From Solirubrobacteraceae bacterium (GTDB lineage Bacteria; Actinomycetota; Thermoleophilia; Solirubrobacterales; Solirubrobacteraceae): a stretch of 64,000 nucleotides of DNA. The notes beneath the pieces were generated by a model. The model was not told the origin of the DNA. It searched no databases and saw only the letters and a list, made by a program, of their open reading frames with translations. The stretch covers positions 186,001-250,000 of the forward strand of contig JAPSGI010000001.1 in assembly GCA_031177685.1 (NCBI GenBank), written 5' to 3'. Position 1 is the first letter of the stretch; each line of letters starts with the position of its first letter. Below, piece by piece: positions 31,343-48,640 of this stretch. Both the position numbers and the translations under genes were made by a program.

Positions 31343-31416
31343 CGCGGGGTGGAGCAGTCTGGTAGCTCGTCGGGCTCATAACCCGAAGGTCGCGGGTTCG
31401 AATCCCGCCCCCGCTA
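31343..31416 (+). tRNA. Initiator tRNA-fMet (CAT)
   Basis: A 74-base cloverleaf without encoded CCA: acceptor CGCGGGG/CCCCGC with unpaired C1 and U72, D-stem GAGC/GCTC, anticodon loop CTCATAA, and three consecutive G-C pairs in the anticodon stem next to the loop (GGG/CCC), the two features that mark initiator tRNA. T-arm CGGGTTCGAATCCCG. Its 3' 43 bases recur at 37731 and 48597, so it serves as an integration site and its 3' end is now supplied by the nearest island. Confidence 0.95.
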
Positions 31417-31418
31417 TG
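31375..31418 (+). repeat. att-like direct repeat, copy 1 (tRNA 3' half)
   Basis: Bases 31375-31418 (anticodon loop to two bases past the tRNA end) are identical over 44 bases to 48597-48640 and differ at one base over 43 from 37731-37773. This is the arrangement left by integrases that use a tRNA 3' end as attB. Confidence 0.85.
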
Positions 31419-31446
31419 CGAAAGCCCCGCTCCGGCGTGGCTTTCG
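31419..31446 (+). terminator. Terminator after tRNA-fMet
   Basis: CGAAAGCC (31419-31426) pairs with GGCTTTCG (31439-31446) around a 12-base GC-rich loop. Similar but diverged hairpins follow the other two repeat copies. Confidence 0.7.
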
Positions 31447-31514
31447 TCGTTTCCGGGGATGAGGCGGCGGGCGCGGCCGCACGGGTTTGCACGGCGGCGC
31501 CCGCTCGGATTTAG

Positions 31515-45528: not shown

Positions 45529-47417
45529 CTGGCACGCATACGTTGTTTCCAGCCATCGGCGTCGGCGGAGTGTTGGGGCTGGTCGCCCTCTGCCAGGCGG
45601 TGGCCTGGGCGGAGCCCGGCGTGATCCGGTTTCCTGCAGGCACGCACATGCAGGTGGTCGGAGTGCATCCCGGTGACCGGGCGGGTGCGGCGGTGGCCGG
45701 AATCGGGGACTTCAACGGCGATCGCATACCGGATGTCGCGGTTGGCGCCCCGGGCACGAGGGCGAAGGGCCGCGGCGCGCCCGGTGCCGCCTACGTGGTG
45801 TTCGGCCGGCGCCGGGGGCCATCGACTGTGCGCCTTGCCGCGCTCGGTCATGCCGGTATGCGCATCGCCGGCGCGCGGTCTGGAGACCGTCTCGGAACGT
45901 CGGTGGCCGCGATCGGGGATGTAAACCGCGATGGTCTGTCGGACGTGGCGCTCGGGGCACCTGGCGTCGACCGCGGAACGCATCGCGACGCCGGCGCAGT
46001 CTACGTGCTGTTCGGGTCTCGGCGCGCCGGGGGCGTTCGCATCGATCGGCTGGGCGCCGGCGGCCTGGAGATCTTCGGCACGCAGACCTATGCGGGAGTA
46101 GGGGATTCGATCTCAGGCTCCGGCGACGTCAACGGGGACGGGATTCCGGACATGGCTCTGGGGTTGTTGGAGCAGCGCGCGAGCAGGACGCCTACCGCGC
46201 GCGTCGTCCTCGGCCCCTTGGCGGCGGGGACCGCACCGGTGGACTCCGCTCGCCTGCGGGGCTTTCAGGCCAGCGCCCCGGGTCCTCGCCCGCCGAGCGG
46301 GCGGCGTTTGCGACCACCATCACGCGTTCCGGTCGCCGGGGTGGGTGACGTGAACGGCGATCGCCTGGACGACGTGGCATTCGGCGACCCGGGAGGCGGA
46401 CCGTTCCAGCCCAGTTCGCTGTCGGCGTATGTTGCGTTCGGCCGCCGGAAGGAGGGCTCGGTCACGACGAGCGGCGGCAACGGGTTTGTCGTGTTCTCCC
46501 CCTCGGCCGGTTTCGGGCCGCTCGGCTTCGGGTTCGCCGTCACCGGCCGGGTAGACGCGACCGGGGACTCCGTTTCCGACATTTGGACGTCTGACGTGCG
46601 CTCAGGCGGCCCAGGCGGGGGGGAGACCGGGTCGGTGTACGCCTTCTCGGGCCGCGGCCGGGCCGAGGGCACCAATGTGACCGCGATCGACGGCTTGCTC
46701 CGGCTGCGCGAGGCGGAGCCGGGCGACGCGCTCGGCTGGTCGCTGACGGTCGCCCCCGATACCGCGGGAAGGCCGGGCTGGCTGGTCGCAGGGGCCCCGG
46801 GCCGCCGCGCCAAGAGCTGCCGGCGCACCGGCGCTCTGTACATGGTCCCGCTGCCGCTGCGGCGGGCCACCACCGAGCTCGCGGACTCGCGCGAGGTCCA
46901 CGAGGTGGTCGGCCGCCGCCCCGAGGGTGCGCTCGGCCAGGCAGTGGCCGACGCGGGGGACATGACCGGTGACCGGGTGCGGGAGGTGGTAGTCGGCGCC
47001 CCGGGCTGGGAAAGCGAGCGGGGACGCGCGCTTGCGGGGTCCGCCTATGTCCTGACGTTGCCGCGCACGAGAGCGCGCCTCGCGGACACGGTCGGGCCAC
47101 GCCTGTGCGTCCGCCGTCCGGCGCTGAGCGCGACGCGGCTCGCCCGCCGCTCGCGCCTGGCGGTTTCGGCAAGCGTCGACGAGGCGGCCACGGTCGACGC
47201 CAGGGCAACGCTGCGCACTCCGGACTCAAGGCTGATCGTCATGGACGGTCGCGCAGTCTCGCTCGCGGGCTCCGGCCGCGCCCTGGTCGAGTTGCGCGTC
47301 CCCTCCGAGGCCACGCGCGCAGCGCGACCCGGCGCGCGCCTCAAGCTGGAGGTCTGGGCGCGAGACCGCAGCGGCAACGTCTCGCGCCGCGAGTGGAAGG
47401 AGCGACTGGAGAGATGA
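45516..47417 (+). CDS. Exported seven-bladed FG-GAP (integrin-like) propeller protein
   Basis: 633 residues from ATG 45516, inside the last 13 bases of the preceding gene. Signal peptide (about 10-32: LFPAIGVGGVLGLVALCQAVAWA). FG-GAP repeats start near residues 64, 134, 204, 277, 346, 412 and 481, the first four with good DxNxDxxxD Ca loops (GDFNGDRIPD, GDVNRDGLSD, GDVNGDGIPD, GDVNGDRLDD). A C-terminal beta-sandwich (about 530-630) ends in GNVSRREWKERLER. It is essentially a free propeller plus an Ig-like domain. Confidence 0.82.
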   Translation: MRPVAGTHTLFPAIGVGGVLGLVALCQAVAWAEPGVIRFPAGTHMQVVGVHPGDRAGAAVAGIGDFNGDRIPDVAVGAPGTRAKGRGAPGAAYVVFGRRRGPSTVRLAALGHAGMRIAGARSGDRLGTSVAAIGDVNRDGLSDVALGAPGVDRGTHRDAGAVYVLFGSRRAGGVRIDRLGAGGLEIFGTQTYAGVGDSISGSGDVNGDGIPDMALGLLEQRASRTPTARVVLGPLAAGTAPVDSARLRGFQASAPGPRPPSGRRLRPPSRVPVAGVGDVNGDRLDDVAFGDPGGGPFQPSSLSAYVAFGRRKEGSVTTSGGNGFVVFSPSAGFGPLGFGFAVTGRVDATGDSVSDIWTSDVRSGGPGGGETGSVYAFSGRGRAEGTNVTAIDGLLRLREAEPGDALGWSLTVAPDTAGRPGWLVAGAPGRRAKSCRRTGALYMVPLPLRRATTELADSREVHEVVGRRPEGALGQAVADAGDMTGDRVREVVVGAPGWESERGRALAGSAYVLTLPRTRARLADTVGPRLCVRRPALSATRLARRSRLAVSASVDEAATVDARATLRTPDSRLIVMDGRAVSLAGSGRALVELRVPSEATRAARPGARLKLEVWARDRSGNVSRREWKERLER

Positions 47418-48349
47418 GAATCAGACACGTAATGATCGCGTCGCTGACCGTTGCCCTGTGGGCCTGTCCCGGACAGCCGGCGCTCGCGACGGTGGCGTCG
47501 GACATGGAGGCCGACCTGCGTGCCTCCGGGATATCGGACGTCACGGTCCAGGTACAGACGCCACCCGCCGCGCCCTCTGCCCTCAACGAGGACGCGGACT
47601 GGTCGGGCGTGACCCTAGACAGCCTCACCCCCTTCATGTCATCCGATCCGTTCCAGCCGTCGCCCGTAGCCCGGATCACCGTGGACCGAGACCCCGGCTC
47701 CCCACTGAAGGGAATCGTCGAGCCGCCTGGTGAGGCCACCTACACGATGGCGGTCGCCGAGCTTCCCAAGCTGAAGCTAGCGGTATGGGAGGCCCTGAAG
47801 CACGCCCTCGCTCAGGGCGCGAACCTCGCTGGTACCAGGCTCGACTTGCGCGAGGACGGTGCCGTCGTCTCCAGCGAGCTGACCAGCGCGCCGCAGCCCG
47901 GTGCCTACTCGCCGACACAGGACTCGCCCTCGGTGATGTCCAAGGATGCGGTTCGCCAACAGGTGGAGGGAGACTTTCCCGCCTGGGCGAAGGCGGCGCA
48001 GGTAACCGTCAGCGACGACTACGTCGGCGAGCGGATCGTGATGGCCCAGCTCGACTTGCCGCACGCTAGCTTCGCCTCGATCGACGTCGGCGAGCTGCTC
48101 CGCACCCTCATCAGCATGCAGATTCGCCTCCAGGACCAGGGAGCTCGTATCGGTCGGGTTCTGGCCCGGGTGGACGATCCCATCACCGGCGACCCCCTCT
48201 ACACCGCAGCAGCGGATGCCCTGTTCGGGTCGATGGAGCTGACGTGGTACTCCCCTCACGTTCGCGGTATCGCTCGCGGGCTCGTCGGGCCGGATGTCCG
48301 AAGCCTCGTGCCGCCAGTGAATTCCGGTCAGCTTCCTGCGGCGCCGTGA
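47414..48349 (+). CDS. Exported protein of unknown function, last gene of the propeller operon
   Basis: 311 residues from ATG 47414 (ATGA overlap). Signal peptide RHVMIASLTVALWACPGQPALA with a possible lipobox-like LWAC. The body is alpha/beta with repeated VEGDFPAWAKAAQVTVSDDYVG-type strands; no family recognised. Tight coupling and export signals on all four genes imply one surface assembly. Confidence 0.7.
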   Translation: MRIRHVMIASLTVALWACPGQPALATVASDMEADLRASGISDVTVQVQTPPAAPSALNEDADWSGVTLDSLTPFMSSDPFQPSPVARITVDRDPGSPLKGIVEPPGEATYTMAVAELPKLKLAVWEALKHALAQGANLAGTRLDLREDGAVVSSELTSAPQPGAYSPTQDSPSVMSKDAVRQQVEGDFPAWAKAAQVTVSDDYVGERIVMAQLDLPHASFASIDVGELLRTLISMQIRLQDQGARIGRVLARVDDPITGDPLYTAAADALFGSMELTWYSPHVRGIARGLVGPDVRSLVPPVNSGQLPAAP

Positions 48350-48596
48350 CTCAGCGGATCATCCCGAGAAGCACCACGGTGTAGTCGTCCCAGTCCATAG
48401 CCGCGGTCTGCGCCCGGTCACCTTGCGCAACATCCTCGACGTCGCTGGCGTCAGCCGAACGACCTGCGCCGCCTCCTCTAGACGCCCCCCGCGGGTACCG
48501 ATCCGGGTACCAATTTGAGCCCAACCGACCCCAGCTCAGCCCCCCGAAACCCCGCAAATACCGGCCAAATCGGTCCACCCGCACGCCTACGGCAGC
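48350..48596. other. Right end of island B
   Basis: No intact gene. A minus-strand frame (48351-48584) ending DWDDYTVVLLGMIR is open but unconvincing. Bases 48493-48520 are the second copy of the island-end sequence described at 37627, again 77 bases before the att repeat. Confidence 0.45.
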
Positions 48597-48640
48597 CTCA
48601 TAACCCGAAGGTCGCGGGTTCGAATCCCGCCCCCGCTATG
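48597..48640 (+). repeat. att-like direct repeat, copy 3
   Basis: 44 bases identical to 31375-31418 of tRNA-fMet. The 5' tRNA half is absent, so it is a site remnant, not a gene. It is the distal end of island B and probably carries the original chromosomal 3' end of the tRNA. Confidence 0.85.

What the first reader, a model, noticed from the sequence alone, without database searches (positions are those of the whole stretch)
31343..48640. Two islands stacked in tandem on the 3' end of the initiator tRNA-fMet
Seen: the 3' 43-44 bases of tRNA-fMet occur three times in direct orientation (31375-31418, 37731-37773 with one mismatch, 48597-48640 identical). Upstream of copies 2 and 3 a 28-base sequence (37627, 48493; about 25/28 identical) stops exactly 77 bases before each repeat, and a hairpin follows all three. 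Known: tRNA 3' ends are standard attB sites. Inference: two elements (about 6.3 and 10.8 kb) inserted one after another; the nearest supplies the current tRNA 3' end and copy 3 is the original. Use of the initiator tRNA, normally present in one or few copies, is a risky and less usual target.
Basis: partly seen in the sequence, partly recalled or inferred. Interest (0 to 1): 0.8.

Follow-up and report, generated by a model that had tools for sequence, protein, structure and literature searches.

The report
Stacked islands at the initiator tRNA
Two foreign DNA blocks without an insertion enzyme of their own sit one behind the other on the gene for the tRNA that starts every protein, and behind them lie the remains of a third insertion whose enzyme gene, to judge from relatives, swaps its own tail when it inserts.

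Summary
Observation confirmed: three direct copies of the tRNA-fMet 3' part, found nowhere else in the genome at this length. The blocks 31419-37773 and 37774-48640 are best read as two tandem tRNA islands. The "28-base sequence" is a pair of arm-type sites (GGTACCAAT x2) of a tyrosine integrase: a relative with the same arms at both ends and an integrase sits on tRNA-Gly in another genome. Neither window island has an integrase. The site is a hotspot: 38 of 101 genomes, own included, show a displaced copy (rough count). Correction: copy 3 is not simply the original tRNA end. It abuts a broken large serine recombinase (48601-49189, minus), a third, older layer. In the order, 10 of 12 such genes with a visible 3' end abut tRNA-fMet or its copy, and right ends in three genomes encode the recombinase's own missing C-terminus: attP lies inside the recombinase gene, so integration swaps the protein's tail. 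Serine integrases in tRNA genes are known but called rare; I did not find the tail swap in print.

The parts
31343..31418 (+). Initiator tRNA-Met(CAT) gene, intact; current attL of the first island
   Evidence: ARAGORN
31418..31447 (+). Terminator-like hairpin after tRNA
   Evidence: fold -20.4 kcal/mol, z -4.07
31419..37773 (+). Island 1 (6.4 kb): alpha/beta-hydrolase, GST-like, cupin, TetR, hydrolase + GT28-like glycosyltransferase; no integrase
   Evidence: Pfam; no PF00589 match between the copies; no arm word seen behind the tRNA
37627..37654 (+). Right-end tandem arm-type sites of island 1 (GGTACCAAT x2, 12-bp period)
   Evidence: same word at both ends of an element in G059
37731..37773 (+). 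Displaced tRNA-fMet 3' copy 2 (bases 33-75, one mismatch): attR of island 1 / attL of island 2
37775..37806 (+). Terminator-like hairpin after copy 2
   Evidence: fold -28.3 kcal/mol, z -5.55
37774..48640 (+). Island 2 (10.9 kb): three large ORFs, two of them with FG-GAP repeats, and a smaller fourth ORF; no integrase
   Evidence: Pfam
37836..37845 (+). Left arm-type site of island 2 (GGGTACCAAT; second of the pair not recognisable)
48493..48520 (+). Right-end tandem arm-type sites of island 2
48597..48640 (+). Displaced tRNA-fMet 3' copy 3 (bases 33-76, identical): attR of island 2, probably also attL of an older serine-recombinase element
48641..48681 (+). Terminator-like hairpin after copy 3
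   Evidence: fold -22.0 kcal/mol, z -3.17
48601..49189 (-). Remnant of a large serine recombinase (residues 388-601 of the G039 homologue, spread over three frames; catalytic part missing), ending ..SSIAGAGFEPATFGL* inside copy 3
   Evidence: tblastn E 2e-29
25991..27073 (-). Conserved upstream neighbour: 2-hydroxyacid dehydrogenase
   Evidence: Pfam; synteny
24208..25863 (-). Conserved upstream neighbour: Ppx/GppA phosphatase
   Evidence: Pfam; synteny

Best explanation
The locus is a three-layer stack of integrated elements on the initiator tRNA gene. Oldest layer: an element with a large serine recombinase that inserted in the T-stem part of the tRNA gene; only a broken C-terminal piece remains behind copy 3. 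Then two lambda-type (bivalent tyrosine integrase) islands inserted one after the other at the anticodon loop, island 2 before island 1. Each brought its own tRNA 3' half and terminator hairpin, so the tRNA stayed functional, and pushed the older 3' half downstream. The 28-mers are the paired arm-type sites of their attR ends. Both islands have lost, or never had, an integrase. Their right ends still carry arm pairs and cores, so an integrase supplied in trans could in principle act on them, better on island 2 (an arm site left at both ends) than on island 1 (none left beside the tRNA). Shown: repeats, arm words, hairpins, absence of a tyrosine integrase, serine remnant, conserved upstream genes. 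Inferred: order of insertion, use by a GGTACCAAT-type integrase, mobility in trans, that the serine remnant is what is left of an element inserted here.
For: Repeats. Of 27 displaced copies examined in 24 loci (window included), 12 have a tandem 10-mer matching 9/10 or better in the stretch 68-120 bases upstream, against 2.3% of random places. In six relatives the left and right ends of one element share the same arm word, while words differ between most elements: GGCATCAA G059, GTGGTTCCA G003, TGCTGGACCA G050, GCCGTCAA G063, GGGCAAC G013 and G090. An element with the window's own word GGTACCAAT at both ends, an open tyrosine integrase frame and a displaced tRNA-Gly 3' copy lies in G059. No PF00589 match lies between the copies in the own genome. 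Serine remnant at copy 3 with the same layout as in G022, G039 and, as a C-terminal remnant, G012. GC 0.734 left flank, 0.699 and 0.686 islands, 0.709 right flank.
Against: Island 1 shows no arm word beside the tRNA and island 2 only one of two, so left ends are damaged or were rearranged. 15 of 27 displaced copies lack a clear arm pair in the stretch tested; two of these, G013 and G090, have one further out. No close relative with an empty site was available. No right end of the serine element was found in 48641-64000 or in the remaining 8 kb of the contig. GC differences are small and the cargo looks like ordinary metabolism.
Confidence: 0.82

Rival explanations
1. Two tyrosine-integrase islands on a pristine site: copy 3 is the original tRNA 3' end and the serine recombinase remnant is an unrelated, vertically inherited neighbour.
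For: The two islands explain all three repeats, and no right end of a serine element was found behind copy 3.
Against: Only 4 of 52 tRNA-fMet loci show a downstream homologue with the window remnant as query, so it is not a constant neighbour. Serine recombinases about 30-76% alike abut tRNA-fMet in the same orientation and mostly the same frame in three families of the order and in other phyla; right ends with short tRNA copies lie 19-21 kb away in G053 and G039. That is the behaviour of an integrase, not of a neighbour.
Confidence: 0.12
2. One composite element or a segmental duplication: copy 2 is an internal att site from recombination between related elements, and the two blocks entered together.
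For: Both right ends carry nearly the same arm word and the same spacing, as expected if one integrase served both blocks.
Against: The Pfam content of the blocks does not overlap, the hairpins and the 76-base spacers differ, and serial displaced copies with different arm words are found in relatives such as G099 and G059.
Confidence: 0.15
3. The repeats are tRNA-derived debris spread by something other than site-specific integration.
For: No tyrosine integrase is present in the blocks.
Against: Only three long copies exist in the genome, all in direct order at one locus; arm words pair up at element ends in relatives.
Confidence: 0.03

Closest known systems
tRNA-gene genomic islands with tyrosine integrases (Islander set, PMC4383910)
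   Same: Displaced 3' tRNA fragment, anticodon-loop crossover class, tandem arrays at one tRNA (table there: 125 tandems of two or more, 3919 islands)
   Different: No integrase on either island, which that method requires; target is the initiator tRNA; a serine-recombinase layer is mixed in
Cis-mobilisable elements (CIMEs; concept recalled, no paper read)
   Same: att-flanked cargo without recombination genes, stacked next to related sites
   Different: Left end of island 1 has no recognisable arm site; mobilisation untested
Serine-recombinase elements in tRNA genes: Mycobacterium AICEs in tRNA-Leu and phiRSM1 in tRNA-Ser (PMC3218068, PMC4471427), Paracoccus phage Pami6 in tRNA-Met (PMC6536676)
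   Same: Serine recombinase, short 3' tRNA core (13 bp in phiRSM; displaced copies of 15-23 bases in the relatives here)
   Different: In the relatives here the recombinase gene itself runs through attP, so its C-terminal codons are exchanged at integration; the phiRSM review places attP between orf14 and orf15
SSV-type 'suicidal' archaeal integrases (PMC8371274)
   Same: att site inside the integrase gene; tRNA target (the latter recalled)
   Different: Those are archaeal tyrosine recombinases that are split; here a bacterial serine recombinase keeps its catalytic part and about 16-18 terminal residues are replaced by about 6

Membership tests
tRNA-targeted genomic island (tyrosine integrase type) | Intact tRNA gene plus displaced 3' fragment in direct orientation | tested here: met
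tRNA-targeted genomic island (tyrosine integrase type) | Integrase gene on the island | tested here: not met
   PF00589 gives 9 matches in the own genome, none between the copies. Filed as integrase-less, decayed or dependent islands
tRNA-targeted genomic island (tyrosine integrase type) | Paired arm-type sites at both ends | tested here: inconclusive
   Right ends 2 of 2 arms in both islands; left end 1 of 2 in island 2, 0 of 2 in island 1
tRNA-targeted genomic island (tyrosine integrase type) | Empty or differently filled site in relatives | tested here: met
   Upstream neighbours kept in 37 of 50 loci, downstream content differs; no same-genus empty site available
tRNA-targeted genomic island (tyrosine integrase type) | Excision as a circle | not testable with these tools
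   no reads
Cis-mobilisable element (CIME) | attL and attR kept, recombination genes absent | tested here: inconclusive
   No tyrosine integrase; attL of island 1 lacks arm words
Cis-mobilisable element (CIME) | Mobilised together with a related element | not testable with these tools
   needs mating or excision assay
Serine-recombinase element in a tRNA gene (third layer) | Large serine recombinase domains (Resolvase, Recombinase) | tested here: inconclusive
   Relatives in G039 and G195 have PF00239, PF07508 and PF13408; the window remnant keeps only residues 388-601 and its longest ORF has no Pfam hit
Serine-recombinase element in a tRNA gene (third layer) | Left junction in the tRNA gene | tested here: met
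   Remnant ends in copy 3 with tail IAGAGFEPATFGL, as in relatives
Serine-recombinase element in a tRNA gene (third layer) | Right junction | tested here: not met
   Not found up to the contig end in this genome; found in G022, G039, G053. The window remnant is therefore called a remnant, not an element
SSV-type suicidal integrase | Archaeal tyrosine recombinase split by its own att site | tested here: not met
   Serine recombinase domains in relatives, bacterial hosts; works like it only in that att lies inside the gene

The most novel reading that the evidence does not exclude
A widespread family of bacterial large serine integrases is specialised on the initiator tRNA gene and carries attP inside its own 3' end. 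Free or tandem form: the protein ends in a conserved tail (such as ..GFEHHPATxYRFVxVREL). Integrated form: that tail is replaced by residues read antisense through the tRNA (..AGAGFEPATFGL*), with the stop codon in the anticodon loop, and the element restores the tRNA 3' end. The swap could switch the integrase between an integration form and a lysogen form. The window's copy 3 is a fossil of such an event, later buried by two tyrosine-integrase islands.
Probability: 0.6. Interest if true: 0.75.

Novelty: new variant of a known kind. Interest (0 to 1): 0.5.

Why it matters
It shows how an essential tRNA gene can be a landing strip for two unrelated recombinase classes because every newcomer brings a working 3' end and a terminator. 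Arm words that agree at both ends of one element but differ between elements give a direct way to pair integrase-less islands with the integrase that could move them. If the tail swap is real, serine integrases with a built-in lysogeny switch at the initiator tRNA become testable, and methods that look only for tyrosine integrases at tRNA genes miss such elements.

Tried and rejected
Read the 28-mer first as the 3' end of an integrase gene (it reads VPIGVPI-stop / VPIRVPI-stop); rejected as the main meaning because the same word is also at the other end of the G059 element and the frame there is not the integrase. Looked for an integrase in the blocks: none; the own genome has a 5'-truncated, frameshifted integrase of the relevant family near a contig end, C24:746-1229. 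Looked for a serine-element right end behind copy 3: none. IMG/VR scan for the serine recombinase: three pattern matches, no relative. Second tRNA 3' copies of 13 bases or more near 13 named loci: none in the up to 10 kb of flank held. A 15-base tRNA 3' pattern in the genomes behind eight named loci gave 20 places in 7 of 8 genomes: 16 full tRNA genes and 4 truncated. Of the four, Azospirillum L162 keeps 21 bases, Devosia L163 31 bases, the Acidobacteria MAG L161 26 of 30 (63.8 kb downstream of the tRNA on the same contig), and Devosia L156 only 17 of 30, probably chance; none holds a clear recombinase piece (best E 0.008), so they are candidates for right ends, no more. Free-phage test: Rhizobium phage RR1-A ends its recombinase gene over a tRNA-fMet-like 25-mer, 17 of 25 matches, the best place in the 6.2 kb examined, but 16 of 25 occurs by chance nearby; Mae-JY30 has 16 of 25 there and a better place elsewhere, Mae-JY29 nothing there: weak support at most. 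The named-genome scan used a peptide pattern that is itself tRNA antisense, so its tRNA adjacency and frame are biased; the less biased count is.
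Full report
Observation. The window (G000:C13:186001-250000) carries tRNA-Met(CAT) at 31343-31416. Its bases 33-76 recur at 48597-48640 (identical) and bases 33-75 at 37731-37773 (one mismatch); no other long copy exists in the 3.15 Mb assembly. The copies begin at the first base of the anticodon loop. Each of the two displaced copies is preceded, at the same spacing of 76 bases by my count, by two GGTACCAAT-like words 12 bases apart, and every copy is followed by a hairpin.

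What the 28-mer is. Of 27 displaced tRNA-fMet copies examined (in 24 loci given to the script, the window's two included), 12 have such a tandem word pair 68-120 bases upstream at 9 of 10 matches or better, against 2.3% of random places. In six relatives the word is the same at the left end (behind the tRNA and its hairpin) and the right end of one element: GGCATCAA (G059), GTGGTTCCA (G003), TGCTGGACCA (G050), GCCGTCAA (G063), GGGCAAC (G013, G090). In G013 and G090 the right pair lies about 25 bases further out, so one search did not count it. This is the layout of arm-type sites of a bivalent tyrosine integrase (general knowledge of lambda-type systems). The window's own word occurs at both ends of an element in G059 that starts at tRNA-Gly(CCC), ends with a displaced 3' copy of it, and holds a tyrosine integrase match about 1.1 kb before the right end. 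So I read the 28-mers as right ends (attR) of elements of this integrase specificity. A single GGGTACCAAT at 37836-37845 is read as the left arm site of island 2; no arm word is recognisable behind the tRNA.

The islands. Island 1 (31419-37773) encodes an alpha/beta-hydrolase, a GST-like protein, a cupin, a TetR regulator and a hydrolase plus glycosyltransferase frame. Island 2 (37774-48640) has three large ORFs, two with FG-GAP repeats, and a smaller one; two of its four ORFs have no Pfam match. PF00589 has nine matches in the own genome, none between the copies; the serine recombinases tested match the window only behind copy 3. Thus the islands are decayed or dependent. The own genome still holds a truncated, frameshifted integrase of the relevant family near the end of contig C24.

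Hotspot. Of 101 genomes searched, 99 have a match to the tRNA query. By my count by eye from a listing that was cut, 38 (own included) show at least one displaced 3' copy (query start 23-39, end 67 or later, 90% or more identical). This is rough: some copies lie on other contigs or far from the tRNA, two short ones may belong to other tRNAs, and in G097 two pieces on different contigs may be one split gene. G099 has five copies in tandem. A Ppx/GppA or 2-hydroxyacid dehydrogenase homologue lies upstream in 37 of 50 loci with at least 1200 bases upstream; downstream, genes of the islands were not found apart from alpha/beta-hydrolase matches in G005 and G026. G001, the only same-genus genome, lacks the tRNA gene in its assembly.

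The third layer. Behind copy 3 the minus strand encodes the C-terminal part of a large serine recombinase, in three frames, residues 388-601 of the G039 homologue. In G022 and G039 a long gene of this kind, and in G012 a C-terminal remnant, follows an intact tRNA-fMet gene; the G022 gene is frameshifted near its end. A search of 232 genomes of the order found relatives in 14: 18 matched stretches, 15 gene copies by my count, of which 12 show their 3' end. Nine of these 12 abut an intact tRNA-fMet gene, one a displaced tRNA-fMet copy (G216), one a tRNA-Tyr gene (G019:C5), and one ends about 150 bases from a tRNA-Gly gene (G210). In the other three (G205, G015, G018) the match stops before the 3' end. 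Nine of the ten at tRNA-fMet or its copy end in the frame ..AGAGFEPATFGL*, with the stop codon in the antisense anticodon loop; in G019:C144 this piece is in another frame than the body of the gene, and G022 reads another frame.

Right ends and the tail swap. In G039 short tRNA 3' copies (bases 54-76 and 54-75) lie 21.3 kb and 26.8 kb behind the tRNA; in G053 one lies 19.3 kb behind and two more further out; in G022 a 15-base copy lies 13.3 kb behind. Read antisense, the sequence on the element side of these copies continues the recombinase frame into a conserved tail..IAGAGFEHHPATGYRFVAVRELHER*..IAGAGFEHHPATEYRFVVVRELA* (G039)..IAGAGFEQTSATAYRIVEQRDLS* (G053), and in G022, in its own frame..SGGGFLTHIPDRSYRFVEVRELA* and ..LRGGFLTDIPDRGYRFVEVRELP*. 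One search adds two G053 places aligned to residue 180 of the 183-residue query; a strict motif test did not match there. I infer that the crossover lies in the T-stem part of the tRNA gene, that attP lies inside the recombinase gene, and that integration exchanges the last residues. At the two stacked junctions in G039 the frame of the next recombinase is joined to the tail again; in one of them a stop codon lies shortly before. Against: the second G022 right end (near L074:9886) shares only CCCGCC with the tRNA; the tail motif was found in no other locus held, so the other recombinase genes have no right end in the DNA fetched (several contigs end early); none was found near 13 named loci nor in the window.

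Breadth. A scan of named genomes gave 17 loci; in 13 the recombinase ORF ends within tRNA-Met(CAT), and a fourteenth ends in the same tail at a contig end without a recognised tRNA. Hosts include Azospirillum, Devosia, Rhizobium, Martelella, Sphingomonas, Gluconacetobacter, an Acidobacteria MAG, a Phycisphaerales MAG and a Chromatiales MAG. Truncated tRNA 3' copies in Azospirillum, Devosia and the Acidobacteria MAG are candidate right ends. Rhizobium phage RR1-A has its recombinase 3' end over a weakly tRNA-like stretch, which I treat as a hint only.

Literature. Islander (PMC4383910; [quoted passage not shown] PMC3218068 (passages) reports Mycobacterium elements in tRNA-Leu, calls such integration rare and names phiRSM1. 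PMC4471427 (passages) gives a 13-bp tRNA-Ser site for phiRSM. PMC6536676 (passages) reports one Paracoccus phage with a serine recombinase in tRNA-Met. [quoted passage not shown] PMC8092301, PMC10654092, PMC8627217, PMC12884075 and PMC8637289 were seen as passages; a search in PMC10083194 gave no mention of tRNA. I found no report of a serine integrase with attP inside its own gene at a tRNA in the listings of searches and the passages read; subscription papers are mostly not covered.

Verdict. The islands alone are ordinary for a tRNA hotspot; the serine layer is the part a specialist would want to see tested.

Noticed in passing
window 27073-31342: Two extra genes (pro-kumamolisin-type protease and esterase) lie between the conserved 2-hydroxyacid dehydrogenase and the tRNA; in several relatives that gene is next to the tRNA.
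   Followed up: no
L098 (G000:C24) 746-1229: 5'-truncated, frameshifted tyrosine integrase of the family found next to tRNA-fMet in relatives, near a contig end.
   Followed up: partly
L095 7202 to L096 1300 (G059:C1): Element on tRNA-Gly(CCC) with GGTACCAAT arm pairs at both ends and an integrase; arm word and tRNA target are therefore separable.
   Followed up: partly
L054 and L055 (G099:C8): tRNA-fMet followed by five displaced 3' copies; two of the segments are only about 1 kb, too short for a full integrase gene plus cargo.
   Followed up: no
L129 12574-14331 (G019:C5): Serine recombinase 76% identical to the tRNA-fMet one of G039 but abutting tRNA-Tyr, whose 3' end matches 26 of 28 bases of tRNA-fMet.
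   Followed up: partly
L161, L162, L163 (genomes behind L138, L150, L142): Truncated tRNA-fMet 3' copies in an Acidobacteria MAG, Azospirillum and Devosia, possible right ends of serine elements.
   Followed up: partly
L182, L194, L197 (G187): Serine recombinase C-termini near both a short (57-76) and longer (33-76) displaced tRNA-fMet copies, apparently another mixed stack.
   Followed up: no
L118 5574-5601 (G195:C173:43573): Partial match to tRNA-fMet bases 31-58 (89%) 23 kb behind the tRNA; unclear whether an att remnant.
   Followed up: no
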